Source: an uncultured bacterium (lineage in GTDB: Bacteria > Verrucomicrobiota > Kiritimatiellia > RFP12 > UBA1067). From it: 55,998 nucleotides of DNA. Numbering within the stretch: the stretch's first letter is position 1; every line of letters begins with the position of its first letter. Positions 1 to 18,439 of this stretch are shown piece by piece. A program made the position numbers and the translations under genes. The notes under the pieces were generated by a model that was not told where the DNA came from, did not search any database, and worked only from the letters and a program-made list of their open reading frames with translations. The stretch is from positions 1-55,998 of the forward strand of contig CACYNF010000004.1 in the NCBI GenBank assembly GCA_902775595.1, in the 5' to 3' direction.

Positions 1-357
1 CGCAGTCGAGTAATACTGCATTCCATCGGCAATGGTGGCACCGTTGGACATTACGAGAATCCAGTTGTAGCTCTGGCCACTGGTGGCAGAACTATAGACA
101 TCGTTTCCCTTTCCTTTGCCACTCAGCACTTTTGCGCCACCATCGCTAATGTTGTATCCCGCAATGGTAGTAGCAACATCAGCGCCACCAGCATCCAATG
201 CGGCAATAGCAGCGTCAAAGTTGGAGTTGAGCACCATATAGACCGTTGCATTTGCGTAGGTCTTTGATCCATCATTATCCATACCCCATGCAGCTGTCGC
301 CGCATGAAGCGAACCCGCAAGCGCAATCGCCGCAAGGCCCATAATTAGTTTCTTCAT
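1..357 (-). CDS. PEP-CTERM-type secreted protein, N-terminal part (module 0)
   Basis: The first 119 codons are visible and the gene runs off the left edge. It starts at complement 355-357 with a signal peptide (MKKLIMGLAAIALAGSLHAA) behind the A-rich leader with AAAGGAAAC that precedes all five genes of this family here. The mature part begins with a TAAWGMDNDG stretch and a small-residue-rich, probably beta-stranded region. The PEP-CTERM tail itself lies outside the window, so family membership rests on the leader, the signal peptide, the upstream hairpin and the position after a headless repeat protein, as in the four complete copies. Confidence 0.8.
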   Translation of the reverse strand, partial: MKKLIMGLAAIALAGSLHAATAAWGMDNDGSKTYANATVYMVLNSNFDAAIAALDAGGADVATTIAGYNISDGGAKVLSGKGKGNDVYSSATSGQSYNWILVMSNGATIADGMQYYSTA

Positions 358-422
358 CTTTTTGTTTCCTTTTCTTGGAGGCATGAGGTTCATCCCAATG
401 CCTCCTTGTTATTTGTTTTCCC

Positions 423-441
423 AGGCGACACCATGCCGCCC
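423..441 (-). promoter_or_regulatory. Conserved intergenic hairpin, copy 0
   Basis: In the coding sense the sequence is a 5-bp stem GGGCG/CGCCT around the 9-nt loop GCATGGTGT, starting about 10 nt after the stop codon of the repeat protein (TAACAATTT precedes it) and about 65 nt before the PEP-CTERM start. It is one of five copies with a changing stem and a constant loop. A second hairpin (GGAGGCAT/ATGCCTCC) follows in this copy only. Confidence 0.75.
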
Positions 442-450
442 ATGAAATTG

Positions 451-1212
451 TTACGGATTGAACGTGAACGTCTCCGAGTCGGTCGCAAGGCAGTTGTCAG
501 GGATGACAATCCAAAAAGCCTTTCCAGCAGGAATGTCATCAGCAGCCTGTGCATATTCACCATCGCGCCACCAACCAGCGGCAAGTCCCTCGTCAGTATC
601 CTCGCAGTAGTAGAACTTCTTCTGATATGCTGCTGCAATATCACTCGTCTTAATCCAAATCTGCGGGCAGTCATCGAGGTCGCAGTCGGCGTAGTCAAGG
701 AGCGGCACACCGTCCGAGACCTGAATCTTGGACATATTGAGAGCGTTCGGGAACGGATTGGCTGCGATGATATATCCACCATTGCAAACGGGAACGGTAA
801 TCCCGCTCGTCATGTCGGCGACCTGCCCGTTGAACGAGATGGAGTAGGACGCCTTGTCGTAGATCGATGCATCGTCAGGAATGACAAGCCAGAAGCCGCG
901 GCCAAGGGCAACCATATCTGCGACGGTCGGCGCATATTCGCCATCCCGCCACCAGCCAGCATCAAGGCCCTCATCTGTATCCTCGCAATAATAGAACTTC
1001 TTTTGGTACGCTGCCGCCGTGTCACTGGTCTTAAGCCAGATCTGCGGGCAGTCATCAAGGTCGCAGTCAGCGTAGTCGAGGAGCGGAAGATCGGTGGTGA
1101 TCTGAGTGCCGAGGTTCGCGGCGTCGGCATCAGAACCGCATTCGTTGAACTGAATCGCCAACATGTTGTACGATCCAGGGACAACATCCCTCTGGACATA
1201 TCCGACAGCGTT
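451..1212 (-). CDS. Headless NAVGY two-repeat protein, module 0 (5' truncated)
   Basis: About 253 codons from NAVGY to the stop. The protein has two tandem repeats of roughly 120 residues, each with DCDLDDCPQIW, YQKKFYYCEDTDEG and GWWRDGEY blocks and ending in a G(R/K)(G/A)FW(L/I)VIPD strand. The frame stays open upstream to about 1542, but that part has no signal peptide. The upstream DNA matches the module 4 flank in a different reading frame, so I take it as non-coding. In related bacteria such proteins normally have a signal peptide just before this motif, so the visible gene looks like a silent 3' cassette. The PEP-CTERM gene follows on the same strand. Confidence 0.7.
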   Translation of the reverse strand, partial: NAVGYVQRDVVPGSYNMLAIQFNECGSDADAANLGTQITTDLPLLDYADCDLDDCPQIWLKTSDTAAAYQKKFYYCEDTDEGLDAGWWRDGEYAPTVADMVALGRGFWLVIPDDASIYDKASYSISFNGQVADMTSGITVPVCNGGYIIAANPFPNALNMSKIQVSDGVPLLDYADCDLDDCPQIWIKTSDIAAAYQKKFYYCEDTDEGLAAGWWRDGEYAQAADDIPAGKAFWIVIPDNCLATDSETFTFNP

Positions 1213-1317
1213 CGCAAATGGGCGGGAGACTGAATTATAGGCATCTTGTGATTTGAAGGGGGGCAGAGATGGTGCAGTAAAGTGCAGTGCGAGAAGGGGA
1301 GAATCGGGTAGATTATC
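1198..1317 (-). other. Bipartite recombination-like site S0
   Basis: In the coding sense, ACTTTACTGCACC (complement 1271-1283) is followed 58 nt later by AACGCTGTCGGATAT (complement 1198-1212), which codes for NAVGY. The intervening DNA shares only a TATAATTCA-like patch with the other copies. The flank beyond, including a CCCGATTCTCCCCTTCT stretch, closely matches site S4 next to the recombinase gene. The role as a crossover site is inferred. Confidence 0.6.
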
Positions 1318-1318
1318 G

Positions 1319-1520
1319 GTGATGAGAAGGGGAGTATTTTCGCTTGGCAGTGGTGGCGACCTTAGAGTTCCCGCGTGGCTGAGGGGGCTCGACAAGTAGC
1401 ACGCCCAGGGGCCGATCACGCAAGATGAACACGTCGTCCAGCGGGCGAGGATTCTTGCCGAGCTGTAGGGGCTCATGGACATTTCGCCATTTGGTGCTAT
1501 TATTTGGTTGGCGGCTAAAA
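1319..1520. other. Non-coding spacer between modules 0 and 1
   Basis: No supported gene. A minus-strand frame of 75 codons here contains a DDVFILRDRPLGVLLVEP patch faintly like a Phd/YefM antitoxin strand. It lacks the rest of that fold and a partner toxin, so at most it is a remnant. The spacer runs from site S0 to the 285-bp repeat. Confidence 0.3.
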
Positions 1521-1805
1521 CATACCGCTTTATACTGCACAATCCGCTCGTTATACTGGTTTATACTGGCCTAAAATAGCGGTAAGAGAGTTCCGCGTAG
1601 ACCCATTAGCGGCAAGGTTTTCGGAGCCCCCAAAAACCGCGCAAGCCCCTTAAACCAATCGACAACTTTTCGATACTCCGCGACAATCCGCGCAATCCTC
1701 GCAAAACCCCAGTAAACACTATGCTTTCCTAAGCCTTCGCCGCGCTCCCCGCCCCACCCCGCGCAAGCCCCCGCAACCCGCCGCAAAACTGGTTTATAGA
1801 GATGT
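1521..1805 (+). repeat. 285-bp direct repeat, left copy
   Basis: Collinear without gaps with 20550-20834 and nearly identical over its first two thirds. It opens with ATACCGCTTTATACTGCAC and two further TTATACTGG words, contains an inverted echo (AAAATAGCGGTA) of its start, and ends in GGTTTATAGAGATGT. The left copy ends inside the first codons of the module 1 repeat protein, where the other modules have their NAVGY site. Differences between the copies would mostly alter the encoded residues of the apparent minus-strand frame, so the repeat is probably non-coding. Confidence 0.85.
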
Positions 1806-2142
1806 CGGCTACCAGACCAAGGATGTGAGGCAGTACCTCTCGGTTCAGCTCGCGACATTTGAGGATGTCGCTGCGGAAGGCATGAACATCCAGAGCATCA
1901 AGCCCGTTGCACCAGACGGAGAGGCAATTTCATCTGGCGACTTTGAAATCCAGATTTATGATGCTCTCGGTTCCATTGTAACCTCCTATGCCTATGTTCT
2001 CGGCGAAGATATCGGCGATGAATATGTTGATGGTTGGTACGAGGAAGACTGGGAGACGCTTGTAAATAAAACATTCAATCCCGGCGAGGGCTTCAACGTT
2101 TCTGCTGCTAAGGTAGGATATCTGAAGTTTCCCGCTCTCTAA
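1801..2142 (+). CDS. Headless DVGY one-repeat protein, module 1 (5' truncated)
   Basis: About 113 codons starting at DVGYQTKDVRQYLSVQ directly at the end of the 285-bp repeat. DVGY aligns with NAVGY of the sister genes. Only one beta repeat is present (VLGEDIGDEYVDGWYEEDW, then FNPGEGFNVSAAKVGYL), against two in the other four modules. An internal ATG at 1825 could allow translation but would give no signal peptide. The gene is followed at 6 nt by the conserved hairpin and then the PEP-CTERM gene. Confidence 0.65.
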   Translation, partial: DVGYQTKDVRQYLSVQLATFEDVAAEGMNIQSIKPVAPDGEAISSGDFEIQIYDALGSIVTSYAYVLGEDIGDEYVDGWYEEDWETLVNKTFNPGEGFNVSAAKVGYLKFPAL

Positions 2143-2148
2143 TGATTT

Positions 2149-2171: not shown

Positions 2172-2224
2172 GAAAACAACCAATGCCCTCTGTCAAAGGA
2201 GGGCAAACAAAAGGAAAACAAAAA

Positions 2225-2776
2225 ATGAAGAAACTAATGATTGCACTTGCAGCGATCGCAATGGCGATTGGTGTGCAGGCTGCGTCTGTTAAGTGGACAG
2301 CAACAAATGTTTATGCTGGCAATTCAACAGACAAGGTCGGGGGCGTAGCCTACTTCCTGACCACCGACATGGCATCAACCGACTCGTGGGCGAACCTGAA
2401 AACCGCCTCGGAATTTCAGACTGCACTCGCTGGCAAGTATAGTTGGACACCAAGCACAGCAGGCACATACAGCATCACCTCTGCTGGAGCTGTGCCCAAT
2501 GCGACTTTGGGGCTCGAAGATGGTACTGCGTATACAGCGTATCTACTCATCTTTGACACTGCGACAATAACGGATGAGTCGAAGTACTATATTACCAATA
2601 CAAAAGAGTTTTCGACATACAACGGTACTTCAACCGCTTCTATTGCGTTTGGAACTCAGGCAAATGCTTCTCAGGCTGCTGGTGGCTGGGCGACGGTTGC
2701 CGTTCCTGAACCGACGAGCGGCTTGCTGATGCTCCTCGGCATGGCGGGGCTTGCGCTCCGTCGTCGTCGCGCCTAA
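2225..2776 (+). CDS. PEP-CTERM domain protein, module 1
   Basis: 183 residues. The signal peptide MKKLMIALAAIAMAIGVQAA is followed by a small-residue-rich beta-type domain of about 135 residues (start SVKWTATNVYAG). The C-terminal sorting signal has VPEPTSGLLMLLG, a short hydrophobic helix and the arginine cluster RRRR before the final Ala. In this family the tail is recognised by an exosortase and the protein ends at the cell surface. No exosortase gene is in the window. The start is set by AAAGGAAAACAAAAA before ATGAAG, shared by all five copies. A strong intrinsic terminator follows. Confidence 0.92.
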   Translation: MKKLMIALAAIAMAIGVQAASVKWTATNVYAGNSTDKVGGVAYFLTTDMASTDSWANLKTASEFQTALAGKYSWTPSTAGTYSITSAGAVPNATLGLEDGTAYTAYLLIFDTATITDESKYYITNTKEFSTYNGTSTASIAFGTQANASQAAGGWATVAVPEPTSGLLMLLGMAGLALRRRRA

Positions 2777-2798: not shown

Positions 2799-2830
2799 AA
2801 AGCCCGTCCGTGATTGCACGGGCGGGCTTT
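2799..2830 (+). terminator. Intrinsic terminator after module 1 PEP-CTERM gene
   Basis: AAAGCCCGTCCG pairs with CGGGCGGGCTTT across the loop TGATTGCA, followed by a short T-rich stretch. The same hairpin, base for base, follows the PEP-CTERM gene of module 3. It lies before the next gene of the same module, so it probably reduces rather than abolishes distal expression. Confidence 0.85.
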
Positions 2831-2865
2831 CTGTTTGACTATGCTAAAGTGGAATGAGATGTTCT

Positions 2866-3702
2866 ATGATCGCGCCTCCGAAAACTGACTCAAATTGCAC
2901 CGACTGCAAGTGCCAGCAGCCCACCATTGGCTTGCTTTGGAAAGGTCTGGCGGTTGTCGTAGTTATTGCGATTGCCAGCGTCGTGTTCTTCTTCTCCCGC
3001 AAAGACAACAACGTTCAACCTGAAATCTCTGACGATGCGCGAACTACCGCCCTCAAGGAAGTGCAGCCAACAAAGTCAAGGGCAAGTTCCCAGGACACTG
3101 CCCTTCCTCGCTCCACTACGAAGGATATTGCTACGGTCGAGAACGAGCAACAGAAAGCCGCGCCGAAGTCAAACTCCCCCTGGGCGAACAAGCCGCCGAG
3201 GGTGATAAAGCATCGAGAATCAGACAAGAAACCTCGCCGATTCGTGTATGATTCGGAAGAGTTGATAGCCAATTTGCTGGAGATTGAACCCGGAACTCTT
3301 ATGTTTGGCGAGTTGCCATACGGCAAGCGGTTCAACGAGGACTTCAAGCAGGCCATAATGCAGAAGGTCAAAATCAACCCCGAAGACGACGAATATACAA
3401 AGGAACTCAAGCGGCAGGTGCAAGCGGTCAAGGATGACTTCAAGCAGATTCTTATAGACGGAGGCGACGTCGGGGAGGAAATGCGCAAGGCCCGCAACGA
3501 GCTGAAGGAACTTGGAATGTTCAAGGAGTCGCTTAGACGCGAGCTGTTTGAGCTCCGCAAGAGCGGAGAGTATTCAAGCGACGACATGAAGGACTTTATA
3601 ACTGCGGCGAACAAGATGCTCGAGGCCAAGGGGCTCCAGCCGCTGAAGGTTCCGCGCGTATTTTTGAGAAATCTCGAACTTAAGGAAGGTAAAACCAAAT
3701 GA
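2866..3702 (+). CDS. Single-pass membrane protein with coiled-coil, module 1
   Basis: 278 residues from ATG 2866, which matches the MIAP start of the module 3 homologue (an ATG at 2854 is also possible). A cysteine-bearing N-terminus (CTDCKC) precedes one membrane helix (about residues 24-44). A long charged and probably disordered linker then leads to a C-terminal region of about 150 residues that is strongly alpha-helical (PEDDEYTKELKRQVQAVKDD, EMRKARNELKELGMFKESL). The closing part ANKMLEAKGLQPLKVP is shared with modules 2-4. Function unknown. The stop overlaps the next start by 4 nt (ATGA), implying translational coupling. Confidence 0.85.
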   Translation: MIAPPKTDSNCTDCKCQQPTIGLLWKGLAVVVVIAIASVVFFFSRKDNNVQPEISDDARTTALKEVQPTKSRASSQDTALPRSTTKDIATVENEQQKAAPKSNSPWANKPPRVIKHRESDKKPRRFVYDSEELIANLLEIEPGTLMFGELPYGKRFNEDFKQAIMQKVKINPEDDEYTKELKRQVQAVKDDFKQILIDGGDVGEEMRKARNELKELGMFKESLRRELFELRKSGEYSSDDMKDFITAANKMLEAKGLQPLKVPRVFLRNLELKEGKTK

Positions 3703-4520
3703 AGAGCATATTTACAGTATTCTGCCTTGCGGCCTGCGCGTCGTATGTCGCAATAGCAGCCCCAGCCAAGCTTACCCCAGAGCAGATAAAGGCAAAGCAG
3801 GAGGCCTTTGCGAAGCTTTCCCCCGAAGAGCGTCAGAAGGCGATAGAGGAAGGCCGGGCGCACTTCCTCGAACGCACGGGCGGCTACGTCAGGAACACGG
3901 CGGGGCAGAAAGGCCGTGTGCTGATCGCTAACGCTCAGAAGTCGGTCCCGCTTGACGGGGTCCGCAAGTCCGTGACGAAGCTTGCCGAGCAGATGAAGAT
4001 TGCCATAGACATCGAGGCCATCGACGGTGCCGACACGGGAAATGCGGCGGCTTTCCTGAAGGACAGGAAGGCAAACGCGGTGGTCTACATTGTCGAAACT
4101 GGAAAGTCGCCACTGCTCGTCTCCCCAGACGAGTGCTGGGCAACCGTAAGCGTGTCAGCCCTTGGCGACGCCAACGCTACGTCCCGCCTCGAAAAGGAGA
4201 CCATGCGGGCGCTGACGTTCCTCTGCGGAGGCACGGCGAGCGGATACCCCAATCCGATGACATATCCCGTCACGGACGTCCGCCAGCTTGACCTGATCGA
4301 CGCACCCGACCTGCCAATCGACGTGATCCAGCGCATGCTTATGTACCTCGAAAAGCTCGGGGTGACGCCGTACAAGCAGGCCACGTACCGCACCGCCTGC
4401 AAGCAGGGCTGGGCACCAGCGCCGACGAACGACGTCCAGAAGGCAATATGGAACAAGGTCCACGAGATGCCCTCCGAGCCGATCAAGATCAAGCCCGAGA
4501 CCAGGAAGGTCAGCGAATAA
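3699..4520 (+). CDS. Secreted protein with GWAPxP/QKAIW C-terminal motif, module 1
   Basis: 273 residues with a signal peptide (MKSIFTVFCLAACASYVAIA, cut near AAPA). A charged stretch rich in Lys, Glu and Ala follows, then a mixed domain with VSPDECWATVSV (residues about 130-145) and EKETMRALTFLCGG. The C-terminal block GWAPAPTNDVQKAIW and KVHEMPSEPIKIKPETRK is the best conserved part among the four copies in the window. I know no family for it. The two Cys near the centre are not matched in all copies. It lies between the coiled-coil protein (4-nt overlap) and the GspF-N-like protein, so a shared envelope complex is plausible. Confidence 0.85.
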   Translation: MKSIFTVFCLAACASYVAIAAPAKLTPEQIKAKQEAFAKLSPEERQKAIEEGRAHFLERTGGYVRNTAGQKGRVLIANAQKSVPLDGVRKSVTKLAEQMKIAIDIEAIDGADTGNAAAFLKDRKANAVVYIVETGKSPLLVSPDECWATVSVSALGDANATSRLEKETMRALTFLCGGTASGYPNPMTYPVTDVRQLDLIDAPDLPIDVIQRMLMYLEKLGVTPYKQATYRTACKQGWAPAPTNDVQKAIWNKVHEMPSEPIKIKPETRKVSE

Positions 4521-4547: not shown

Positions 4548-5324
4548 GTGAAATACACATACGCATACAAGACGAGCGACGGTGTCCGGCACGAGGATTC
4601 GCTCGATGCCAACAGCCGTGACGAGGTCTTTGAGGTTCTTCGCGGGCACGGCATTAGGCCCATCAAAGTTGTCGCGGCGGACGGCTCTAAGGCGAACGGA
4701 GAGGTTCGCGGTCTCCGCAAACGCGCCGTGTTCGCCCTTGTTGCCCTCGCTGCAGCAGTCGCTGGTGTCGTCGCCTACTTCGGCGGGGAGCGCTCAGGCG
4801 CGGCCACAGCCGCCAATTACGCGATGTCCGCGCCTCGGCACCAGATTTACGGCGATCCGGCAACCGTCGAGGGGTTGGAGCGAGGCGACTTCGCGGCTCA
4901 TTTGCCGCGAGTCGGCGATCAGATGCTTGCGGTTTTTGCGCAACCTGGCAAGTTGATGTGCGCCAAGGGTGCGAATCCGAGGCGCATTGACGAAAAGAGC
5001 TACGGGGCTTTCGAAGCATACGCTAAGAACGACCTTGCCGTGGAGAATGACATAGCCATCAATTCAGCAGACTCACGTGAAATCACGGAACTGAAGCAGA
5101 TCGTGAACGGGATGCGCGAGGAAATGCGCGAGTACCTCGCCAATGGCAATGGAACGCCGCGTTCCTTCTGGCGACGGCTCAACGAGCGAACCGAGCAGGA
5201 GATTCAGATCTACGAGCGCACCCGCCGCGAACTGGAGAAAGAGACTTCCGAAGAGGTCTGGGAGCAGAAGAACGATGCCTTGCGGCGGTTGGGTCTGCGC
5301 ACAATTCCCAACCCCGGCGAGTAG
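4548..5324 (+). CDS. GspF N-domain-like single-pass membrane protein, type A, module 1
   Basis: 258 residues from GTG 4548. Residues 1-50 (KYTYAYKTSDGVRHEDSLDA, then RDEVFEVLRGHGIRPIKVV) follow the pattern of the first cytoplasmic domain of GspF/PilC, the inner-membrane platform of type II secretion and type IV pili. One membrane helix follows (about 62-80), then a region of about 180 residues ending in a long helix (RTRRELEKETSEEVWEQKND). A true GspF has two such domains and three helices, so this is a separate small protein with only the first domain. It is nearly identical to 12496-13272. Its stop lies 3 nt from the stop of the convergent module 2. Confidence 0.85.
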   Translation: MKYTYAYKTSDGVRHEDSLDANSRDEVFEVLRGHGIRPIKVVAADGSKANGEVRGLRKRAVFALVALAAAVAGVVAYFGGERSGAATAANYAMSAPRHQIYGDPATVEGLERGDFAAHLPRVGDQMLAVFAQPGKLMCAKGANPRRIDEKSYGAFEAYAKNDLAVENDIAINSADSREITELKQIVNGMREEMREYLANGNGTPRSFWRRLNERTEQEIQIYERTRRELEKETSEEVWEQKNDALRRLGLRTIPNPGE

Positions 5325-5333
5325 TCGCTACTC
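5319..5333. repeat. Palindrome at the module 1/2 tail-to-tail junction
   Basis: GAGTAG-TCG-CTACTC. The two TAG stop codons of the convergent genes sit in its arms with only 3 nt between them. The same arrangement, with TAG as spacer, occurs at 13267-13281. Confidence 0.8.
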
Positions 5334-6086
5334 CAGCGATTCAAGGGTTAGCGGGCGGATGCCGAGGTTGCGAAGTTTGTCGTTCTGCGACTCCCAGTAG
5401 TTGATGAGAGCATTTCCGCTCATTGTCTCTTTGGCTCGCTCCAGATTTGCCTTTGTGCGCTCGTATGCGGCGATCTCGGCGTCTTGCCGCTCTGTCAGCC
5501 GCCTGCCATAACTAACGACACTACCACCAGCGGCGACGTAGGCACGCGCCTCATTCTTCATGCCCTCGACCATCGCCTTGATCTGCCGCGCCTCAAGTCC
5601 ATCTTCGGTTGCGACGGGAACACTGCGGCCAAGCGAGGACTCGATCTCCTCGACGGTCGTGTTTCTCTGCGCCGCCTTAACACCCGGCACTGCGAAGGAG
5701 GCGAGGAAGCGGTCTCCTTCGTGTTCAAACACATCGCTCCAGCCGGTCAGAATGCCTTTCTCGATAATGGCCGCGTCGCCTATTGGATAGCGGCGCGTCT
5801 GGTCTGACTGAAATGCATCCACCACCAGCGTCGGGCGGACAATGCGCAGAAAGGCCGCTGTCGCGCCCACTGCGGCAACGAACGCCACGAGGATGGACAC
5901 AGCTACAACTCGCCGACGGACACCCACGGGCGCGCCGTTGGCCTTGCTGCCGTCTGCGGCGACTACCTTGATTGGGCGGATGCCCCGCTCGCGCAACACT
6001 GCAAATGCGGCGTCGCGGCTCGCGGCTTCTATCGACGCCTCGTGCCGTGTTCCGTCCGACGTCTTGTAGGCGTAGGTGTATTTCAT
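5328..6086 (-). CDS. GspF N-domain-like single-pass membrane protein, type B, module 2
   Basis: 252 residues. The N-terminus (MKYTYAYKTSDGTRHEASIE, then AVLRERGIRPIKVVAADGSK) is the same GspF-like domain as in type A. A membrane helix follows (about 58-80, VVAVSILVAFVAAVGATAAF) and then a different C-terminal region ending AKETMSGNALINYWESQND. It is nearly identical to the module 4 copy (13276-14034). The start overlaps the preceding gene's stop by 4 nt (ATGA). The partner of the N-terminal domain is unknown. Confidence 0.85.
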   Translation of the reverse strand: MKYTYAYKTSDGTRHEASIEAASRDAAFAVLRERGIRPIKVVAADGSKANGAPVGVRRRVVAVSILVAFVAAVGATAAFLRIVRPTLVVDAFQSDQTRRYPIGDAAIIEKGILTGWSDVFEHEGDRFLASFAVPGVKAAQRNTTVEEIESSLGRSVPVATEDGLEARQIKAMVEGMKNEARAYVAAGGSVVSYGRRLTERQDAEIAAYERTKANLERAKETMSGNALINYWESQNDKLRNLGIRPLTLESLE

Positions 6087-7834: not shown

Positions 7835-7866
7835 GAAAGCCCGCCCGCGCATCGCGGACGGGCTCT
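7835..7866 (-). terminator. Intrinsic terminator after module 2 PEP-CTERM gene
   Basis: In the coding sense GAGCCCGTCCGCG and CGCGGGCGGGCTTTC form a stem of about 13 bp around a short loop, 17 nt before the next start codon. Confidence 0.75.
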
Positions 7867-9230: not shown

Positions 9231-9377
9231 TCGTTTTCGAGCAGAAAACGACTCCATACAATCCCTTGGACTCGGTATGATTCAACGCCCGAGTGTGCCA
9301 TTAAAGCAGTGTATCTTCACTTGGGTAAATGACCTTCAAAACTGCCTGGAACGGGCTCAGCAAGGGGCGTTTTTCCC

Positions 9378-9466
9378 TTCACTTTTCTGCACCTTAACTG
9401 CACTGTTCCATTAGGCTGGCACTTGCATTTAAAGGCTCACGCCATCTGCGAACGCTGTCGGGTATG
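9378..9466 (+). other. Bipartite recombination-like site S3
   Basis: ACTTTTCTGCACC at 9381-9393, 57 nt, then AACGCTGTCGGGTAT at 9451-9465. Inverted with respect to S2, so the two head-to-head modules have matching sites in opposite orientation. Confidence 0.6.
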
Positions 9467-10800: not shown

Positions 10801-10832
10801 AAAGCCCGTCCGTGATTGCACGGGCGGGCTTT
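10801..10832 (+). terminator. Intrinsic terminator after module 3 PEP-CTERM gene
   Basis: Same 32-nt hairpin as 2799-2830, followed by a short T-poor tail (ATCTCATG), which suggests incomplete termination before the downstream gene at 10854. Confidence 0.8.
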
Positions 10833-11716: not shown

Positions 11717-12499
11717 ATGAAAACAATTATTTATGTACTTTCTCTTGTTGCCTTAATCCCAATGTCGGTCGTTGCGGCCGATATTTCAACTTCACCGGCA
11801 GATGCCGAAAAGCAAGGCGTCAAAAAGCGTGACCTGATACTTTACAAGCACAATGGAGGCGTACTGAAACGCCCAGACACGCAGAAAGGTGTCGTGTATT
11901 ACGTCAATGCGCAGAAACTGGCTCCTGTCGAGTGGCTCAAGCAGAATGCCGCCATTTTTGCGGAGAACATTAAGATAGCCATCGAGGTAAAGGATGGGGC
12001 GTTTGATTTCCCCAATCCAAAGATCCAAGGCAACGCAACTCTCTTTGTCGTCAACGACGAGTCGTTGCCCACCATCCTCCACGCTCCCGAATCTCGCTGG
12101 TGCTTGGTAAATGTGGCTCCGCTGGCAAAGGGCGCTGGAGAGAAGCCCCAGTTCTTTTCCGCCCGCGTCCAGAAGGAGCTGACACGCGCCTTTTCGCTTC
12201 TTGCGGGAACGCAGACATCAAACTACCCGAATTCACTTCTCGGCTGCGTCACAAAGCCTGAAGACCTCGACTTGTTTGCCGATTGCGTCTTGCCCGTAGA
12301 CATCATTGGACGCTTTGCGCCCTATCTCGCTGGCTACGGCGTAAAACCGTATGAGCAGTCCACATATCGCAAGGCTGTTCAGGAAGGTTGGGCACCCGCG
12401 CCTACGAACGATGTTCAGAAGGCGATCTGGGAAAAGGTTCACGCCATGCCTACGGAGCCGCTGAAGATCAAGCCCGAGACGAAAAAGCAGGAGAAGTGA
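11717..12499 (+). CDS. Secreted protein with GWAPAP/QKAIW motif, module 3
   Basis: 260 residues from ATG 11717 with the signal peptide MKTIIYVLSLVALIPMSVVA. Shared blocks are ATLFVVNDESLPTILHAPES, RWCLVNVAPLAKGAG and the end GWAPAPTNDVQKAIWEKVHA, then LKIKPETKK. The last stretch matches module 1 (KIKPETRK) rather than module 2 (KIEFDPKK), so the 3' end co-varies with the type A GspF-like gene that follows with a 4-nt overlap (GTGA). Confidence 0.85.
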   Translation: MKTIIYVLSLVALIPMSVVAADISTSPADAEKQGVKKRDLILYKHNGGVLKRPDTQKGVVYYVNAQKLAPVEWLKQNAAIFAENIKIAIEVKDGAFDFPNPKIQGNATLFVVNDESLPTILHAPESRWCLVNVAPLAKGAGEKPQFFSARVQKELTRAFSLLAGTQTSNYPNSLLGCVTKPEDLDLFADCVLPVDIIGRFAPYLAGYGVKPYEQSTYRKAVQEGWAPAPTNDVQKAIWEKVHAMPTEPLKIKPETKKQEK

Positions 12500-13272
12500 A
12501 ATATACCTTCGCATACAAGACCTCGGACGGCGTCAGGCATGAGGATTCACTTGATGCCGAGAGCCGCGACGAGGTCTTTGAGGTTCTTCGCGGGCGCGGC
12601 ATTAGGCCCATCAAAGTCGTAGCGGCGGACGGGTCGAAGGCGAATGGAGAGGTTCACGGCCTTCGCAAACGCGCCGTGTTCGCCCTTGTAGCCTTCGCTG
12701 CGGTTGTTGCGGGCGTTGTTGCCTACCTCGGCGGGGAGCGCACAGGGGCCGCCACAGCCGCCAATTCTGCGGCAAGTGCGCCGCGCCACCAGATATACGG
12801 TGACCCGGCGACGATGGAGGGGCTGGAACGCGGCGACTTCGCGGCGCATCTGCCGCGCACAGGCGACCAGATGCTCGCCGTCTTTGCACAGCCGGGCAAG
12901 CTTATGTGCGCCAAGGGTGCGAATCCGAGGCGCATCGACGAAAAGAGCTACGCGGCTTTCGAGGCATACACCAAGAATGAACTTGCTGCGGAGAACGACA
13001 TTGCCATCGAGCAATCCGATCTACGCGAAATCACGGAGCTGAAGCAGATCGTAAACGGGATGCGCGAGGAGATGCGAGAATACCTTGCAAATGGCAACGG
13101 CACGCCTCGCTCCTTCTGGCGGCGGCTCAACGAGCGCACCGCGCAGGAGATGCAGATATACGAGCGCACCCGACGCGAACTGGAGAAAGAGACATCTGAA
13201 GAAGTCTGGGAGCAGAAGAACGATGCCTTGCGGCGGTTGGGGCTGCGAACGATTCCCAATCCTGGAGAGTAG
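12496..13272 (+). CDS. GspF N-domain-like single-pass membrane protein, type A, module 3
   Basis: 258 residues starting at GTG 12496 (VKYTFAYKTSDGVRHEDSLD). It is nearly identical to the module 1 protein at 4548-5324, with a GspF-like domain (1-50), membrane helix (about 62-80), the segment HQIYGDPATMEGLERGDFAA and a C-terminal helix. The high similarity to module 1, against the divergent upstream genes, points to recent duplication or gene conversion of the module centre. Confidence 0.85.
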   Translation: MKYTFAYKTSDGVRHEDSLDAESRDEVFEVLRGRGIRPIKVVAADGSKANGEVHGLRKRAVFALVAFAAVVAGVVAYLGGERTGAATAANSAASAPRHQIYGDPATMEGLERGDFAAHLPRTGDQMLAVFAQPGKLMCAKGANPRRIDEKSYAAFEAYTKNELAAENDIAIEQSDLREITELKQIVNGMREEMREYLANGNGTPRSFWRRLNERTAQEMQIYERTRRELEKETSEEVWEQKNDALRRLGLRTIPNPGE

Positions 13273-13281
13273 TAGCTACTC
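13267..13281. repeat. Palindrome at the module 3/4 tail-to-tail junction
   Basis: GAGTAG-TAG-CTACTC, holding both stop codons of the convergent genes with 3 nt between them, as at 5319-5333. Confidence 0.8.
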
Positions 13282-14034
13282 AAGGGATTCGAGGGTGAGC
13301 GGGCGGATGCCGAGGTTGCGGAGCTTATCGTTCTGCGACTCCCAGTAGTTGATGAGGGCGTTGCCGCTCATGGTCTCCTTTGCCCGTTCCAAATCTGCCT
13401 TTGTGCGCTCGTATGCGGCGATCTCGGCGTCTTGGCGTTCCGTCAGCCTCCTGCCATATTCGACGATGGTTCCCCCTGCTGCAATGTAGGCTCGCGCCTC
13501 GGACTTCATGCCATCGACCATCGCCTTAATCTGCCGCGCCTCAAGTCCATCGTCGGATGTGGGATTAATCTTTCGCGCAAGTGCGGACTCGATCTCCTCG
13601 ACCGTCGTGTTGCGTTGCCCTGCCTTTACACCAGGCACGGCGAAGGAGGCGAGGAAGCGCTCTCCTTCATGTTCAAACACATCGCTCCAGCCGGTAAGGA
13701 TGCCTTTCTCGACGATTGCAGCATCGCCTATTGGATAGCGGCGCGTCTGGTCTGACTGAAATGCATCCACCACCGGCGTCGGGCGGACAACGCGCAGAAA
13801 GGCCGCTGTCGCGCCCACAGCGGCGACGACCGCGACGAGGATGAACACAGCCACCACTCGCCGACGGACACCCACAGGCGCGCCGTTAGCTTTGCTGCCG
13901 TCTGCGGCGACTACCTTTATCGGGCGGATGCCCCGCTCGCGCAACACTGCAAATGCGGTATCGCGGCTCGCGGCTTCTATCGACGCCTCGTGCCGTGTTC
14001 CGTCCGACGTCTTGTAGGCGTAGGTGTATTTCAT
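13276..14034 (-). CDS. GspF N-domain-like single-pass membrane protein, type B, module 4
   Basis: 252 residues from ATG at complement 14032-14034, overlapping the preceding stop by 4 nt. It is nearly identical to the module 2 protein (5328-6086), with the main differences near residues 160-200 (ALARKINPTSDDGLEARQIK). It has a GspF-like N-terminal domain, one membrane helix and a helical C-terminus ending LRNLGIRPLTLESLE. Confidence 0.85.
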   Translation of the reverse strand: MKYTYAYKTSDGTRHEASIEAASRDTAFAVLRERGIRPIKVVAADGSKANGAPVGVRRRVVAVFILVAVVAAVGATAAFLRVVRPTPVVDAFQSDQTRRYPIGDAAIVEKGILTGWSDVFEHEGERFLASFAVPGVKAGQRNTTVEEIESALARKINPTSDDGLEARQIKAMVDGMKSEARAYIAAGGTIVEYGRRLTERQDAEIAAYERTKADLERAKETMSGNALINYWESQNDKLRNLGIRPLTLESLE

Positions 14035-14798
14035 CGACCCTTCTTCGGATCGAACTCGATTTTCATGGGGGTAGCGGGCACGGCGTGAACCTTGTCCCAG
14101 ATCGCCTTTTGGTATTCGTTTGCAGGAGGCGGTGCCCATCCCTCGGCGCAGGCTCTCCTGTATGATGTGAGCTTCGCTTGTGCGATGCCCAGCTTCGCGG
14201 CGCTCTGCGACATCTCCCTGAATGGTTCAGGGCAGGGCTGCTCCATTTTGAGATTGTCGATGTCCTTTATTCCTGCGCAGGGTTTCATTACACAGGCTGG
14301 CATCTGGTTGTTTCCCCCACCCAGCATGTAGACGAGCGCCCTCCACACCTCCTTCGTTACCCGCTTGGCGAACTTCTCGGCATCAGGCGCATCCGCCTTT
14401 AGCGGGGCGACGTTCACGCTTGCCCACCCCTGCTCCGGCGCAGCGAGGATCGTCATCTTCGATGTTGCGTCGTCTTTTACCACAATGTACGCGCCAGTAT
14501 TGGCATCGGGGAGGTATTCCCGCGTCGGCTCTCCCTTGATGACCGTGGCTGAGAACCTCGGTCCTGTCGAGACGGCCTTCGCCAATGCATTGAAAATTTC
14601 GTCTGGCACTCCGCTCCGGGCATCGACAATCTTGATGCCCCTCCCCGTGGCGGGGGCTACGACGAAGCCGCCTGTCTTGCGCATGACCTCCTCGCGCATC
14701 TCGGCGGGGGTCTTTCCGTGTTTCCCGTCCGTTTTGCCTTCAGCGGCAATTGCGGCAATGCACAGTGTGGCCGCGATGCAAGCTATTATGTTCTTCAT
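14031..14798 (-). CDS. Secreted protein with GWAPPP/QKAIW motif, module 4
   Basis: 255 residues with a signal peptide (MKNIIACIAATLCIAAIAAE). The body (GGFVVAPATGRGIKIVDARS, LAAPEQGWASVNVAPLKADA) is the most divergent of the four copies, but it keeps the order of blocks and the end GWAPPPANEYQKAIWDKVHA, then KIEFDPKKGR, shared with module 2. The switch from strong divergence to near identity occurs around QKAIW, about 14100. Confidence 0.85.
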   Translation of the reverse strand: MKNIIACIAATLCIAAIAAEGKTDGKHGKTPAEMREEVMRKTGGFVVAPATGRGIKIVDARSGVPDEIFNALAKAVSTGPRFSATVIKGEPTREYLPDANTGAYIVVKDDATSKMTILAAPEQGWASVNVAPLKADAPDAEKFAKRVTKEVWRALVYMLGGGNNQMPACVMKPCAGIKDIDNLKMEQPCPEPFREMSQSAAKLGIAQAKLTSYRRACAEGWAPPPANEYQKAIWDKVHAVPATPMKIEFDPKKGR

Positions 14799-14799
14799 G

Positions 14800-15705
14800 T
14801 CATTGTCTCCCTTGTTGGTTCCTTTTGCTCTTTATCGTTTGGAGCTTCTCCCTGATGTGCTGGCGAAGCTCGCGGTTCTCCGTTCCGGGCATCCTGATTG
14901 GCTCCGAGCCAAGTTCAATAAGTTTTTCGTTCGCCTTGTCGACGTATTCGCGGGCAAGCTCGACGTCGCCGCTTTTGTAGATGTCCAGCGCCTCATTCTG
15001 TGCCTCTATGCGGAGCGCGGCGTTCTCCCTGAGGAGCGACTGGTGCTGTGTCAGTATCTCGTAGACGGACAGCCCCTCGCTCTCCTTGATGGCCAGCACC
15101 TCCGCCCGCAGTTTAATCACGGCTTCCTTGGCGGCCCGCACTTCGGCGCTGTCGCCGTCCAGTATCTCGATCGGAGTCTCCAGGCTCTTCATGAAGTCGT
15201 GGTCGACGCTCTTCGTTATGGGCAGAGGCGGCATGTCGCGACCGGGTGGAGTTGAGGCGATCATGCCGAGAATCTGGTCGGAGCCGTTCGTGAAGATCGA
15301 CCTCCGCCTTGCGAACTTCTCCTTCCACTTGTTCAACCGGGCCTCCTCCGCAGCGGCTTCGGCATTGGCCACCTCATTGGAACTTGCGTCGGCGGCGTGA
15401 ATCAAGCGCCGAGCGGCACCGCCGGAAGATGCAGCAGCAGACTTGGGGGCTATGTCCTTCACTCGTCGCGTCTTTGGAGTGCCGAGCCTCCTGGCCTCCG
15501 CCTCATCCTGTTGCGCATGGTTGCATGAAAACAGCCACCATGCGCCACATGCCACTGCGACAACGGCAAGCGCGGCGAATGTGCCGCGCAGCCAGCCGCA
15601 CCTGGCGGACGGGGCGGGGCGACTCGTCGCGCGGCTGTCCGCCGTGCGATTCCCGTAGCCTTTGCGCGGCACATTCGCCGCGCCGCCGCTGCCGTTCCAT
15701 GCCAT
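14800..15705 (-). CDS. Single-pass membrane protein with coiled-coil, module 4
   Basis: 301 residues. A Gly/Arg-rich N-terminus (NGSGGAANVPRKGYG) without a GspF-like domain precedes one membrane helix (about 42-60), an Ala-rich linker and a long helical part (AEEARLNKWKEKFARRR, RENAALRIEAQNEALDIY). The pattern DHDFMKSLETPIEILDGDSA and the closing ANEKLIELGSEPIRMPG align with the other copies. Function unknown. It begins 19 nt after the terminator. Confidence 0.8.
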   Translation of the reverse strand: MAWNGSGGAANVPRKGYGNRTADSRATSRPAPSARCGWLRGTFAALAVVAVACGAWWLFSCNHAQQDEAEARRLGTPKTRRVKDIAPKSAAASSGGAARRLIHAADASSNEVANAEAAAEEARLNKWKEKFARRRSIFTNGSDQILGMIASTPPGRDMPPLPITKSVDHDFMKSLETPIEILDGDSAEVRAAKEAVIKLRAEVLAIKESEGLSVYEILTQHQSLLRENAALRIEAQNEALDIYKSGDVELAREYVDKANEKLIELGSEPIRMPGTENRELRQHIREKLQTIKSKRNQQGRQ

Positions 15706-15723: not shown

Positions 15724-15757
15724 GAAAAGCCCGCCCGATTTCTCGGACGGGCTTCTC
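15724..15757 (-). terminator. Intrinsic terminator after module 4 PEP-CTERM gene
   Basis: In the coding sense AGAAGCCCGTCCG and CGGGCGGGCTTTTC pair around AGAAAT. It lies between the PEP-CTERM gene and the membrane protein gene, as in modules 1-3. Confidence 0.75.
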
Positions 15758-15791
15758 TGAATGCCGCGTTCGTCGCGGCCTTATTCCAGGA

Positions 15792-16307
15792 TTACGCCCT
15801 CTTGCGCTTCAGCGCGAGACCCGCGATGCCGAGAAGCATCAGGAGCCCGCTCGTCGGCTCAGGAACGGCAGCAAGCGTGTGCCAGTTCCCAGCTGTCGCC
15901 ATCTCACTTTTCGAGGCGAAGGTCTTTGCTGCGGGAGTAGCAGTATCTCCTACAGCAGTAGAAACTGTAGCCGCGGAGGAGACGTAATACTTGTCATCAC
16001 TGACAACTACAGCATACCACGAATAGTCTGTGCCTTCCGTTACCCACGAATCTTTTACCGTGATGTTTCCTGTCGAAGCCGTCATTGATCCGACTGATAG
16101 CGTACCTTTGGACTTGGACGCACTCTGAATGTCAGCCAAGGACATCTGCTTCGAGCTGTCATAGTCGGCAGCAAGAATCATATACACGTCAGCTCCATCG
16201 TAGGGCGAACCTGCGGCTTTAGTCGCCGTAAACGCCCAGCGGAATTGAGCAGCTTGAGAAGCGATGGCCGCCAATGCGACACACGCGACAATTACTAGTT
16301 TCTTCAT
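15792..16307 (-). CDS. PEP-CTERM domain protein, module 4
   Basis: 171 residues. The start ATGAAGAAACTAG lies 8 nt after AAAGGAAAA. The signal peptide is MKKLVIVACVALAAIASQAA, the mature start QFRWAFTATKAAG. The mid-region YSWYAVVVSDDKYYVSSA parallels the other copies. The tail has VPEPTSGLLMLLG followed by a helix and KRKR instead of RRRR, still a basic end typical of this sorting signal. Confidence 0.92.
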   Translation of the reverse strand: MKKLVIVACVALAAIASQAAQFRWAFTATKAAGSPYDGADVYMILAADYDSSKQMSLADIQSASKSKGTLSVGSMTASTGNITVKDSWVTEGTDYSWYAVVVSDDKYYVSSAATVSTAVGDTATPAAKTFASKSEMATAGNWHTLAAVPEPTSGLLMLLGIAGLALKRKRA

Positions 16308-16328
16308 TTTCATTTTCCTTTGTTTTTC

Positions 16329-16351
16329 GCGCACGACCCTGTGCCGTACAC
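16329..16351 (-). promoter_or_regulatory. Conserved intergenic hairpin, copy 4
   Basis: In the coding sense the 7-bp stem GTGTACG/CGTGCGC (two G-U pairs) encloses the loop GCACAGGGT, 7 nt after the stop with TAACAATTT upstream. Confidence 0.75.
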
Positions 16352-16358
16352 AAAATTG

Positions 16359-17042
16359 TTACTTCGTGAATGTGATTGTCACATCCGTTCCAGCCTTGAA
16401 CCAGAAACCTGTCCCAACGGGAATTGTCGCTCCCTCGTCAGGACCACCCGCATCAAAATCAAACCAGAAGGAATCACCTTCAAAGTTGATGTAAAAGAAG
16501 TCAGAGTAGCCATCTGCCTTTGGAACGAGAATATGCGGAGCAGTTTCAACGAACGCAAAATCTTCATCAAAATCGACGCCGACTATACCCGAATATGTCA
16601 CACCAGAGACAGCGCAAGCGATGGGATATGGATTTGCAATCATGCTCCACTCGTCAGCTGTTGTTGAAACTGGTACCGAAGAATCGCTGACAACCTGGCC
16701 AGCGAAAGTAACGCTGCAATCTTCGCCTGACTGCTTGAACCAGATGCCCGTACCCGCAACAATGGGGGTTCCCTCGTCAGGGCCACCAGCATCAAAATCA
16801 AACCAGAATGTCTCTCCTTCAAAATTGATGTAAAAGTAGTCGGAGTATCCAGTCGGACTCGGAACCATGATGTGCGGAGCTGTGTCGATGAAGAGGAAGT
16901 CCTCGTCAAAGTCGACAGCACTATACTCTCCTTTGACCAGATTCGACAGAAGCGCATCGTTCCCATCGACTCCCTCGAACTGCACAGCCGTCAAGAGCCA
17001 TGCATCCTTCTTCGCCGTCACTGACGTATACCCGACAGCGTT
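16359..17042 (-). CDS. Headless NAVGY two-repeat protein, module 4 (5' truncated)
   Basis: About 227 codons from NAVGYTSVTAKKDAWLLTAV. Two repeats share VDFDEDF, ETAPHI/DTAPHI, GYSDFFYINFEG and FWFDFDAGGPDEG, then G(T/I)(G)FWFK. The second restarts with EWSMIANPYPIACAVSGV. The frame is open upstream, but the DNA there is homologous to the module 0 flank in a different frame, so it is not coding. A GTG within TSVTA could start translation without a signal peptide. It adjoins site S4 and the recombinase gene. Confidence 0.7.
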   Translation of the reverse strand, partial: NAVGYTSVTAKKDAWLLTAVQFEGVDGNDALLSNLVKGEYSAVDFDEDFLFIDTAPHIMVPSPTGYSDYFYINFEGETFWFDFDAGGPDEGTPIVAGTGIWFKQSGEDCSVTFAGQVVSDSSVPVSTTADEWSMIANPYPIACAVSGVTYSGIVGVDFDEDFAFVETAPHILVPKADGYSDFFYINFEGDSFWFDFDAGGPDEGATIPVGTGFWFKAGTDVTITFTK

Positions 17043-17146
17043 CGTAAATGGGTAGGAGGCTGAAATACAAGCACTTTGCGTTTGCGGGATGGCAGAGATG
17101 GTGCAGTAAAGTACAGTGCAGGAAGGGGAGAATAGGGTAGAATATC
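17028..17146 (-). other. Bipartite recombination-like site S4
   Basis: In the coding sense, ACTTTACTGCACC (complement 17100-17112), 57 nt, then AACGCTGTCGGGTAT (complement 17028-17042). The flank CCCTATTCTCCCCTTC matches site S0. It lies 30 nt before the recombinase gene, so the promoter of that gene is probably within or beside the site. Confidence 0.6.
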
Positions 17147-17176
17147 AGAACGAAAATTATCAGAAAGGACAATAAG

Positions 17177-18439
17177 ATGGCACGCGAAAAAGGGATGGGT
17201 AGTCTTCAGCTCGAAAAGAGCGGGCGGTGGACGATGAGGGTCGGGATCAAGGGCAAGCGGTACAGCCGCTCGACAAGGACGACTGACCGCGAAAAGGCCG
17301 AGAAGTTCTTAGAGCGGTTCTTGAGTCCGCTGGGGCTCGGCTCGCGGCGTTTGCCGCTGGCGGACGTCTGGCTTGAGTACGTGAAGTCTCCCGATAGACG
17401 CGACCTCGCGCCGTCTACGCTCAATGCGAAGCGGCTCATCTGGATGGAGTTCGCCCGCTGGATGGAGCATCACCATCTCGAAATCGGTAATCTCGCCGAA
17501 GTGACTCATGAGGCGATTGCCGAATACCTCGCCTGCATTCGGGCAGAGGTGTGTGCATCGACCTATAACGCCCGCATCTGCGTGTTGCGGGAGATATTCC
17601 ATGTTCTTGCTGCAAAGGCCGGGCTTGTTGACGACCCTTGGGAAGGGGTGCGGCTCCACGCGGACGACTGCCACAGCCGCCGCGAGCTGACCCTCGACGA
17701 AATCGAGCGCCTCATGAAGGCGGCGGCAAAGGCGGGAGTCGAGTGGAAGCGGCTATTCACAATCGGAATCTACACCGGCCTCCGCCTCGGAGACTGCTGT
17801 TGTCTCGCTTGGAACTCGGTCAACCTCGAACGCGGGGTGATACAGCTCATTCCGACGAAGACGCGCAAGCACGCTCACGGCCAGCCGGTCACGATTCCCA
17901 TTCATCCGCAACTACTGGCGGAGTTGAGGGGGAATGGCGAACATGAAAAGGGGATGTTTGTGAATCCTACTTTGGCCGAGTATTACAAGAAAAACAAGTG
18001 GAGAATAAGTCACGGGCTGGAGCTGATCTTCAAGGCGGCGCATATCGAGACAAGCGTGAAGATAGAAGGGCGGCGAACCCGCACCCCGGAGGCTACGTTT
18101 CATTCTCTCCGACACACGTTCGTTTCGAGTGCCGCGAACGCTGGTGTTCCGCTTCCAGTCGTTGCGTCAATTGTCGGGCACTCTTCAACTGCGATGACGA
18201 GACACTACTACCACGAGAATGAAGAAATGCTCCGTCAGGCCGTCGCCGCAATCCCGAGCCTTGATGACTTGAAGGGTAGTAAATCTGGTAGTAAGCCGTC
18301 GAACAGTATTTTGCAGCCTCCAAGAAGCGCTCAAACCGTCGAGCAACGACTAAGGCAGTTAGAAAAGCTAAAGCGCAAGTCACTCATTTCAGAGGAGGAA
18401 TACGCTTCAACCCGCAGCCGAATTTTGGCAGAAATATAG
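17177..18439 (+). CDS. Tyrosine recombinase/integrase beside the module array
   Basis: 420 residues, with ribosome-binding AGAAAGGA upstream of ATG. An N-terminal arm-binding-like region (GRWTMRVGIKGKRYSRS) is followed by a SAM-like core-binding domain (about 60-165, LAPSTLNAKRLIWMEFARWM) and the catalytic domain. The catalytic set is visible: Arg in TGLRLGD (about 203), Lys in PTKTRKHAHG (about 230), HSLRH (about 308-312), His in VGHSS (about 334) and Tyr in TRHYYH (about 344-345). The C-terminus adds about 60 residues. The enzyme class cuts and rejoins DNA at paired sites. Its position at the end of an array of inverted cassettes mirrors rci in shufflons. An alternative is the integrase of a degenerate mobile element bounded by the 285-bp repeats. 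Confidence 0.92.
   Translation: MAREKGMGSLQLEKSGRWTMRVGIKGKRYSRSTRTTDREKAEKFLERFLSPLGLGSRRLPLADVWLEYVKSPDRRDLAPSTLNAKRLIWMEFARWMEHHHLEIGNLAEVTHEAIAEYLACIRAEVCASTYNARICVLREIFHVLAAKAGLVDDPWEGVRLHADDCHSRRELTLDEIERLMKAAAKAGVEWKRLFTIGIYTGLRLGDCCCLAWNSVNLERGVIQLIPTKTRKHAHGQPVTIPIHPQLLAELRGNGEHEKGMFVNPTLAEYYKKNKWRISHGLELIFKAAHIETSVKIEGRRTRTPEATFHSLRHTFVSSAANAGVPLPVVASIVGHSSTAMTRHYYHENEEMLRQAVAAIPSLDDLKGSKSGSKPSNSILQPPRSAQTVEQRLRQLEKLKRKSLISEEEYASTRSRILAEI

What the first reader, a model, noticed from the sequence alone, without database searches (positions are those of the whole stretch)
1..18439. Shufflon-like array in which whole five-gene operons are the invertible cassettes
Seen: modules 1(+)/2(-) and 3(+)/4(-) form tail-to-tail pairs. 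Each pair is bounded on both sides by 5'-headless genes that break at the same codons. Module 0(-) looks like the right half of a further pair, and a tyrosine recombinase gene follows the last site. Known: in the R64-type shufflon, segments with two convergent partial ORFs are bounded by inverted repeats, a constant 5' exon lies at one end and the recombinase gene rci at the other. Inferred: inverting a segment here would join a different operon (surface repeat protein, PEP-CTERM protein, membrane and secreted partners) to one promoter and signal-peptide exon outside the window. That would be phase or antigenic variation on an operon scale, which I do not know to be described.
Basis: partly seen in the sequence, partly recalled or inferred. 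Interest (0 to 1): 0.93.

Follow-up and report, generated by a model that had tools for sequence, protein, structure and literature searches.

The report
Switchable surface-operon cassettes in gut bacteria
A bacterium related to gut Kiritimatiellae carries a row of gene sets whose first gene lacks its secretion-signal beginning, beside a recombinase that likely swaps them, one at a time, onto a single promoter and secretion signal, which would let the cell change its predicted surface proteins.

Summary
Five modules (four complete, five genes each) start with a repeat gene cut at the same Val-Gly-Tyr codons, and a tyrosine recombinase gene follows the last break. Four of the five breaks are recombination-type sites: three CTGC-type repeats 10-11 bp apart, 79-82 bp before a GTCGGNTAY core. 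A site model matches 22 of 61 genomes of the genus and 4 of 19 genera of the family, and the matches co-occur with this recombinase.

Relatives hold what the window lacks. In ten genomes I found one intact head with a signal peptide, the same core codons and no arm repeats. On nine contigs it faces opposite to 21 of 22 arm-bearing silent heads. Homologues of window gene bodies (69-91% identical) occur in metagenomes joined to signal peptides, switching at the same codons. Synteny with a close relative stops at the core, where different modules follow.

Best reading: a lambda-Int-like recombinase inverts DNA between one expression site and several silent sites. No switch was observed; the expression exon is missing from this assembly; co-expression of genes 3-5 is unproven. 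It works like the vsa locus and the shufflons, at operon scale and with asymmetric sites: a new variant of a known kind.

The parts
1..357 (-). module 0 gene B (MKK start; cut by the contig start)
   Evidence: ORF list; the window is the whole contig C4
451..1215 (-). module 0 gene A from VGY on, no signal peptide (frame open into the leader up to 1542)
1197..1289 (-). silent recombination-type site S0 (arms 1271-1287, core GTCGGATAT)
1218..1317 (+). copy of the recombinase upstream leader
   Evidence: 81% to 17048-17146
1367..1468 (+). remnant of a recombinase C-terminus (deleted copy)
   Evidence: 80% to recombinase ends in L073/L056; 1367-1807 aligned with L055 4087-4531
1521..1805 (+). end element, copy 1, abutting the head of module 1
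   Evidence: 94% to 20550-20834; only two copies in the assembly
1804..2142 (+). module 1 gene A, headless, short
2225..2776 (+). module 1 gene B, PEP-CTERM protein
2799..2830 (+). hairpin between B and C, terminator-like
   Evidence: identical 32 nt at 10801-10832
2854..3702 (+). module 1 gene C, membrane protein by eye (no predictor run)
3699..4520 (+). module 1 gene D, weakly archaemetzincin-like family
   Evidence: NCBIfam hit below cut-off on the module 4 homologue
4548..5324 (+). module 1 gene E, start weakly like GspF
   Evidence: NCBIfam hit below cut-off on the module 4 homologue
5328..6086 (-). module 2 gene E
6083..6853 (-). module 2 gene D
6850..7818 (-). module 2 gene C
7836..7866 (-). 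hairpin between B and C of module 2
7889..8443 (-). module 2 gene B, PEP-CTERM-type protein
8502..9161 (-). module 2 gene A, headless
9143..9231 (-). silent site S2 (arms 9215-9231)
9376..9466 (+). silent site S3 (arms 9377-9393)
9448..10152 (+). module 3 gene A, headless
   Evidence: signal-peptide-bearing homologue P0030
10218..10778 (+). module 3 gene B, PEP-CTERM-type protein
10801..10832 (+). hairpin between B and C of module 3
10854..11696 (+). module 3 gene C
11717..12499 (+). module 3 gene D
12496..13272 (+). module 3 gene E
13276..14034 (-). module 4 gene E
14031..14798 (-). module 4 gene D, weakly archaemetzincin-like
14800..15705 (-). module 4 gene C
15725..15753 (-). hairpin between B and C of module 4
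15792..16334 (-). module 4 gene B, PEP-CTERM protein
16359..17045 (-). module 4 gene A, headless
   Evidence: signal-peptide-bearing homologue P0018
17027..17118 (-). silent site S4 (arms 17100-17116); synteny with the close relative G016 starts here
17177..18439 (+). tyrosine recombinase with predicted N-terminal arm-binding-like domain
20550..20834 (+). end element, copy 2

Best explanation
This is an array of gene modules, each headed by a repeat gene that lacks a signal-peptide start and is cut at the same Val-Gly-Tyr codons, next to a tyrosine recombinase that likely inverts DNA between these break points and one promoter-plus-signal-peptide exon predicted to lie left of the window, so that one module at a time would be expressed. 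Silent sites consist of three arm repeats (CTGC-type) about 80 bp from a GTCGGNTAY core. The presumed expression site has the core alone. The recombinase, predicted to be lambda-Int-like, would bind arms and core and exchange strands at the core. An inversion would place a new A-B-(C-D-E) module behind the promoter and signal peptide and park the old one behind the arm leader, keeping the array intact and reversible. Shown: headless genes, sites, arm spacing, signal-peptide heads in relatives, and homologous gene bodies found with either flank. Inferred: catalysis, inversion, silence of headless modules, surface location, co-expression of C-E, and antigenic or phase variation as the role.
For: Search not based on arms: a protein profile of gene A gave 102 matches in 41 of 61 genomes. 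I took up 75 of them and could classify 73: 58 headless, 39 of them with an arm at 76-86 bp, and 15 with a signal peptide, 0 of them with an arm (Fisher 1.3e-6). Arm repeats lie 79-82 bp from the core in 33 of 33 sites tabulated (most were found with a model that contains the arms). Orientation: the signal-peptide head is opposite to 19 of 19 arm-bearing heads on eight contigs; a ninth contig, G096:C1, gives 2 of 3. The synonymous core codons match in 27 of 27 heads of nine genomes (permutation 8e-4); G096 adds 3 of 3. Promoter scores are higher for 7 signal-peptide heads than for 29 silent ones as groups (p 4e-4). A recombinase of at least 55% identity is present in 19 of 22 genomes with site matches and in 4 of 39 without. 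Homologous gene bodies occur with signal peptides: P0030, 91% to module 3 A; P0018, 72% to module 4 A; P0127 and P0130, 75% and 69% to module 2 A. Leader-joined relatives are P0009, P0121 and P0126. Close relative G016: 91% identity over 17028-20472, beginning at the core, with different modules beyond. Two assemblies continue one leader into two modules, with exact identity up to the core: 141 nt in G021 and 99 nt in G099.
Against: No inversion was observed. The expression exon was not found in this assembly. In the window one silent site (9450, +) points opposite to the other three, and in G096:C1 one silent head has the same orientation as the signal-peptide head; recombination there would delete, not invert. 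In G021 the two alternative modules face near-identical partner genes (4 of 149 residues differ), so two strains or a duplication fit as well; in G099 one of the two heads is out of frame. A terminator-like hairpin follows gene B in all four complete modules, so C-E may not follow the switch. Module 0 gene A has in-frame start codons in its leader. 19 of 58 headless A genes have no arm, some with a different break point inside the signal peptide. G030 shares only one of the two core codons between its signal-peptide head and its arm site. Four genomes hold a recombinase of at least 55% identity without site matches; one genome with a match, G013, shows no core there. No signal-peptide head was found for about half of the genomes with sites, G000 included. 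The promoter-like score of G047 is no better than shuffles. The 15 sites used to define the arm consensus recur in the later counts.
Confidence: 0.8

Rival explanations
1. Integron-like or excision/integration cassettes: the recombinase excises modules as circles between direct-repeat sites and reinserts them at an expression site.
For: Many silent sites are direct repeats of each other (G049: seven in one direction), L069 has tandem two-gene cassettes, and one silent head in G096:C1 is in the orientation of the signal-peptide head.
Against: The signal-peptide head is opposite to 21 of 22 arm sites. The recombinase scores 21 bits against a 265 cut-off for integron integrase. The sites do not fold into attC-like hairpins (z +0.14 to +0.95 on five sites).
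Confidence: 0.12
2. A dead archive: the headless modules are pseudogene remains of past recombination or duplication, and no switching occurs now.
For: Module 1 A is short, the recombinase copy between modules 0 and 1 is deleted, some relatives have broken heads (G047 1739, G099:C111), and no switch was seen.
Against: Downstream frames stay open for 211-297 codons in 22 of 27 silent heads, and two of the other five run into contig ends. Catalytic positions of the recombinase are invariant in 12 sequences, arms and core recur in four genera, and homologous bodies are found with signal peptides elsewhere.
Confidence: 0.1
3. RecA-type homologous recombination or gene conversion at short shared codons, as in Neisseria pilin; the recombinase belongs to something else.
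For: The shared core is short and coding (VGY), and modules also differ between species away from the core.
Against: The arm repeats lie at a fixed distance in the noncoding leader of silent sites and not at signal-peptide heads, recombinase and sites co-occur in 19 of 22 against 4 of 39 genomes, and flanks switch at one position.
Confidence: 0.05
4. Assembly or binning artefact: chimeric metagenome contigs created the headless genes.
For: The relatives read are metagenome assemblies as far as their titles say, and several contig tips lie at or near cores.
Against: Site matches recur in 22 of 61 genomes and in named public MAGs of different record series (RGIG, RUG, SIG, metaWRAP), with conserved noncoding leaders.
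Confidence: 0.03

Closest known systems
Mycoplasma pulmonis vsa locus (HvsR recombinase)
   Same: Inversion places promoter, ribosome site and the 5' part of the coding region in front of a previously silent gene that lacks its 5' end; a tyrosine-recombinase-like gene lies nearby (PMC2268961 and PMC4534519, passages).
   Different: Single lipoprotein genes, not operon-sized modules. The Vsa constant part is long (first 714 nt). I saw no mention in those passages of arm repeats limited to silent sites. Different phylum and proteins.
Bacteroides fragilis SusC/SusD intergenic shufflon (Tsr0667)
   Same: Inversion of large segments brings alternative outer-membrane gene pairs downstream of one promoter; inverted repeats overlap the start codon (PMC5729914, passages; PMC11852207, passages).
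   Different: Two-gene units and other proteins. Here the break lies after the signal peptide and the silent genes lack that start. The sites were not compared.
R64 shufflon (Rci, sfx)
   Same: Several sites and a recombinase gene beside the array (PMC11852207, passages); convergent partial ORFs (recalled).
   Different: sfx sites are given as 12 + 7 + 12 bp in that paper; no match to the recalled consensus here. R64 swaps C-terminal segments of PilV; here nearly whole proteins plus downstream genes.
Heterobivalent tyrosine integrases (lambda Int, Tn916 Int; recalled)
   Same: Arm-type direct repeats at one partner site only, a core at both, and an N-terminal three-strand-plus-helix domain in the model.
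   Different: Used here, on our reading, for a repeated switch inside a chromosome, not for entry or exit of a mobile element.

Membership tests
R64-type shufflon | multiple inverted sites bounding convergent partial ORFs | tested here: met
R64-type shufflon | 19-bp sfx-type site | tested here: not met
   0 matches with up to 3 mismatches in the window (consensus recalled)
R64-type shufflon | constant 5' exon at one end of the array | tested here: inconclusive
   not in this assembly; present in relatives
R64-type shufflon | Rci-family recombinase | tested here: inconclusive
   NCBIfam best hits are Xer subfamilies below their cut-offs; no Rci model was consulted
vsa-type expression-site switching | one head with promoter and 5' coding part, silent copies without it | tested here: met
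   in ten relatives, one signal-peptide head each among the matches read; not found for G000 itself
vsa-type expression-site switching | site-specific inversion observed between states | not testable with these tools
   no reads or clones; contig-tip overlaps only suggest alternative joints
SusC/SusD intergenic shufflon | SusC/SusD proteins | tested here: not met
   no such domain in nine proteins scanned, recombinase included
Integron | integron integrase (TIGR02249) | tested here: not met
   21 bits against a cut-off of 265
Integron | attC-like foldable sites | tested here: not met
   z-scores +0.14 to +0.95 for five sites
Heterobivalent tyrosine integrase | catalytic Arg, Lys, His-x-x-Arg, His, Tyr | tested here: met
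   R203, K228, H309, R312, H335, Y344/Y345 invariant in 12 sequences (role of the residues recalled)
Heterobivalent tyrosine integrase | N-terminal arm-binding domain | tested here: inconclusive
   model has E9-12 E18-24 E27-32 H38-52 and best Foldseek matches are full-length lambda Int, but mean pLDDT is 68
Heterobivalent tyrosine integrase | arm-type repeats at one site of the recombining pair | tested here: met
   39 of 58 headless heads, 0 of 15 signal-peptide heads; binding itself not tested

The most novel reading that the evidence does not exclude
A directional operon-exchange switch: a lambda-Int-type recombinase uses attP-like silent sites (core plus three arms) and one attB-like expression site (core only, inside the reading frame just after the signal peptide). 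Productive recombination would then be limited to expression x silent pairs, mostly inversions. Whole secreted-protein operons would be switched in frame from archives of up to seven silent modules, and this antigenic-variation system would be widespread in uncultured gut Kiritimatiellae.
Probability: 0.55. Interest if true: 0.88.

Novelty: new variant of a known kind. Interest (0 to 1): 0.78.

Why it matters
It gives a predicted antigenic or phase variation system for a class of uncultured gut bacteria for which I found none in print: no held paper pairs Kiritimatiell* with 'phase variation' or 'invertible', and the seven listed with 'recombinase' hold either word one to three times (listing only). 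It works, on our reading, on operon-sized units and in frame at a signal-peptide border. The arm/no-arm asymmetry is a testable idea of how an array can switch again and again without deleting itself. The site model finds the system in other genomes.

Tried and rejected
Rejected: membership of the R64/sfx type; integron; the other GspF-N-like copies in G000 at C85 and C60 as further modules (other gene contexts, no A or B gene beside them); the three-mismatch site hit C47:22376, with no module gene near it (the other 2- and 3-mismatch hits were not read); the expression-exon pattern hit C153:2919 with 2 mismatches, taken as chance and not read further.

Weak points of my counts: the arm consensus was learned from 15 sites that recur later (at least 13 of the 47 matches are such sites); 27 of the 102 gene A matches were not taken up; one match lay outside the fetched stretch, one lacked VGY, and one (G049:8097) was labelled signal peptide by the script and moved by hand to headless, because its 'signal' is translated leader. 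Signal peptides and membrane segments were judged by regular expression or eye, with no predictor. The core codons and orientations tested were typed in. The 55% identity line was chosen after seeing the data; at E <= 1e-80 the split is 20 of 22 against 10 of 39. In one search the rows named L055 are void (a record name clashed with an alignment row).


Full report
What was checked. The window is the whole contig C4 (55,998 bp) of an unnamed assembly G000 (3.15 Mb, 203 contigs, 86% complete). Of 17 named relatives of its recombinase, seven are labelled Kiritimatiellae, from goat or yak gut; the others are labelled uncultured bacterium (5), Verrucomicrobia (3), Lentisphaerae (1) and Spirochaetaceae (1). 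Four complete modules of five co-oriented genes form two tail-to-tail pairs. Part of a fifth lies at the left end. A tyrosine recombinase follows the last break.

The genes. A is a two-repeat protein with a confident, mostly beta model and no convincing PDB match. B ends in a PEP-CTERM sorting motif (modules 1 and 4 scanned; the motif is seen in modules 2 and 3 too); an exosortase is encoded elsewhere in the assembly (G000:C9:37014). C and E look like membrane proteins by eye; E of module 4 has a weak, below-cut-off match to GspF at its start, and D of module 4 one to archaemetzincins. A hairpin with a short T run separates B from C in all four complete modules, so A and B are the safest transcription unit.

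The fifth break (1801) is different. It abuts a 285-bp element that recurs at 20550-20834 and nowhere else in the assembly. Before it lie a copy of the recombinase leader and the remnant of a recombinase end. So the window seems to hold the end of one array unit (module 0, deleted recombinase, end element) and then a second unit (modules 1-4, intact recombinase, end element). In another genome, G010, a headless gene is preceded by what reads as the same end element.

Relatives supply the missing exon. In G016 (its contig is the goat duodenum MAG record JAFQYM010000026.1 by length, recombinase 95% identical) the array is one tail-to-tail pair. Its outer A gene is intact: MKKLMIAAVASIAAVGAFAVESANIVGYQ, while the inner one beside the recombinase is headless with arms. 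Single intact heads also lie in arrays of G007, G043, G047, G049 and G051, in G027 and G002 (in G002 on another contig than its silent heads) and, in two other genera, in G105 (L065) and G096. Best promoter-like scores upstream are higher for seven of these than for 29 silent heads (p 4e-4); two are perfect TTGACA-18-TATAAT, six of seven beat at least 97 of 100 shuffles, and one, G047, is no better than shuffles.

Tests. (1) Arms: a protein search gave 102 matches in 41 of 61 genomes. Of 75 taken up, 73 could be classified: 39 of 58 headless and 0 of 15 signal-peptide heads have an arm. (2) Orientation: 19 of 19 arm-bearing heads on eight contigs oppose the signal-peptide head. G096:C1 gives 2 of 3, so 21 of 22 overall. 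(3) Core codons: the two codons for Val-Gly could be any of 16 pairs, yet 27 of 27 silent heads share them with the signal-peptide head of their own genome (permutation over nine genomes 8e-4). G096 adds 3 of 3. G030, not in that test, shares the V codon (GTT) but not the G codon (GGG against GGA). (4) Distribution: the site model hits 22 of 61 genomes of the genus with 47 matches. Of 30 matches read, 27 have a core followed by a VGY frame, 22 of these open for 211-297 codons; 3 have no core (two in G016, the only one in G013). In the family it hits 26 of 114 genomes and 4 of 19 genera. (5) Recombinase: present at 55% identity or more in 19 of 22 genomes with site matches against 4 of 39 without.

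Evidence for exchange. The window and G016 are 91% identical from 17028, in the core, to 20472, and left of the core carry different modules, alike only in pieces at 66-89%. In a 5.8-billion protein set the body of module 3 A recurs at 91% identity with a signal peptide (P0030), that of module 4 A at 72% (P0018), and that of module 2 A at 75% and 69% (P0127, P0130). Other homologues carry what reads as translated arm leader before the same VGY (P0009, P0121, P0126). In two assemblies one leader runs into two different modules, with exact identity of 141 nt (G021) and 99 nt (G099) that ends in the core. These lengths look like assembler k-mers (recalled), so they would mark branch points in the read graph. 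In G021 both modules face near-identical partner genes (4 of 149 residues differ), so mixed strains or duplication remain possible, and in G099 one of the two heads is out of frame.

Mechanism. The simplest account is inversion between one arm-less expression core and several arm-bearing silent cores, by a lambda-Int-like enzyme. Inversion leaves the arm leader in place with the module just displaced, so the array can switch again. The asymmetry would discourage silent x silent events, most of which would delete modules. That last step is inference. In the window, sites at 1197, 9143 and 17027 point left and 9450 points right; an exon to the left pointing right could invert with the first three directly and with the fourth after one further inversion.

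What is known. The logic is that of the M. pulmonis vsa locus (PMC2268961, PMC4534519; passages) and of shufflons (PMC11852207; passages). Multi-gene inversion units are known from the B. fragilis susC/susD shufflon (PMC5729914; passages). I found no held paper joining Kiritimatiell* with phase variation or invertible DNA, nor PEP-CTERM with shufflon. The library holds only open-licence papers. Hence a new variant of a known kind, not a new kind.

Noticed in passing
window 1218-1805 and 20550-20834: A deleted recombinase copy (leader 1218-1317 plus C-terminal remnant 1367-1468) is followed by a 285-bp end element that recurs only after the intact recombinase region. The joint GTTTATAGAGAT|GTCGGCTA recurs at window ~1790 and L055 ~5540.
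   Followed up: partly
G025:C52 (L153), G036:C53 (L145), G037:C54 (L155), G015:C16 (L156), G003:C110 (L146), G016:C60/C34 (L135, L151): A second class of headless A genes breaks inside the signal peptide codons (for example ..ATVFAIESENIVGY after unrelated sequence) and has no arm at the usual place. This suggests a sister system with another break point and perhaps another recombinase.
   Followed up: no
window 2799-2830, 7836-7866, 10801-10832, 15725-15753: Hairpin GCCCGTCC...GGGCGGGC between genes B and C in all four complete modules, identical over 32 nt in modules 1 and 3.
   Followed up: partly
G043:C20 and G043:C43 contig starts; G021, G027 and G099 contig tips: Exact contig-tip overlaps of 85, 141, 139 and 99 nt link array contigs of one bin, so whole arrays could be walked in the assembly graphs.
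   Followed up: partly
L064 (contig length as G083:C241) and L069 (contig length as G027:C42): Other layouts: the recombinase sits between an E gene and the silent site of the next module (L064), or in front of two tandem A-B two-gene cassettes (L069).
   Followed up: partly
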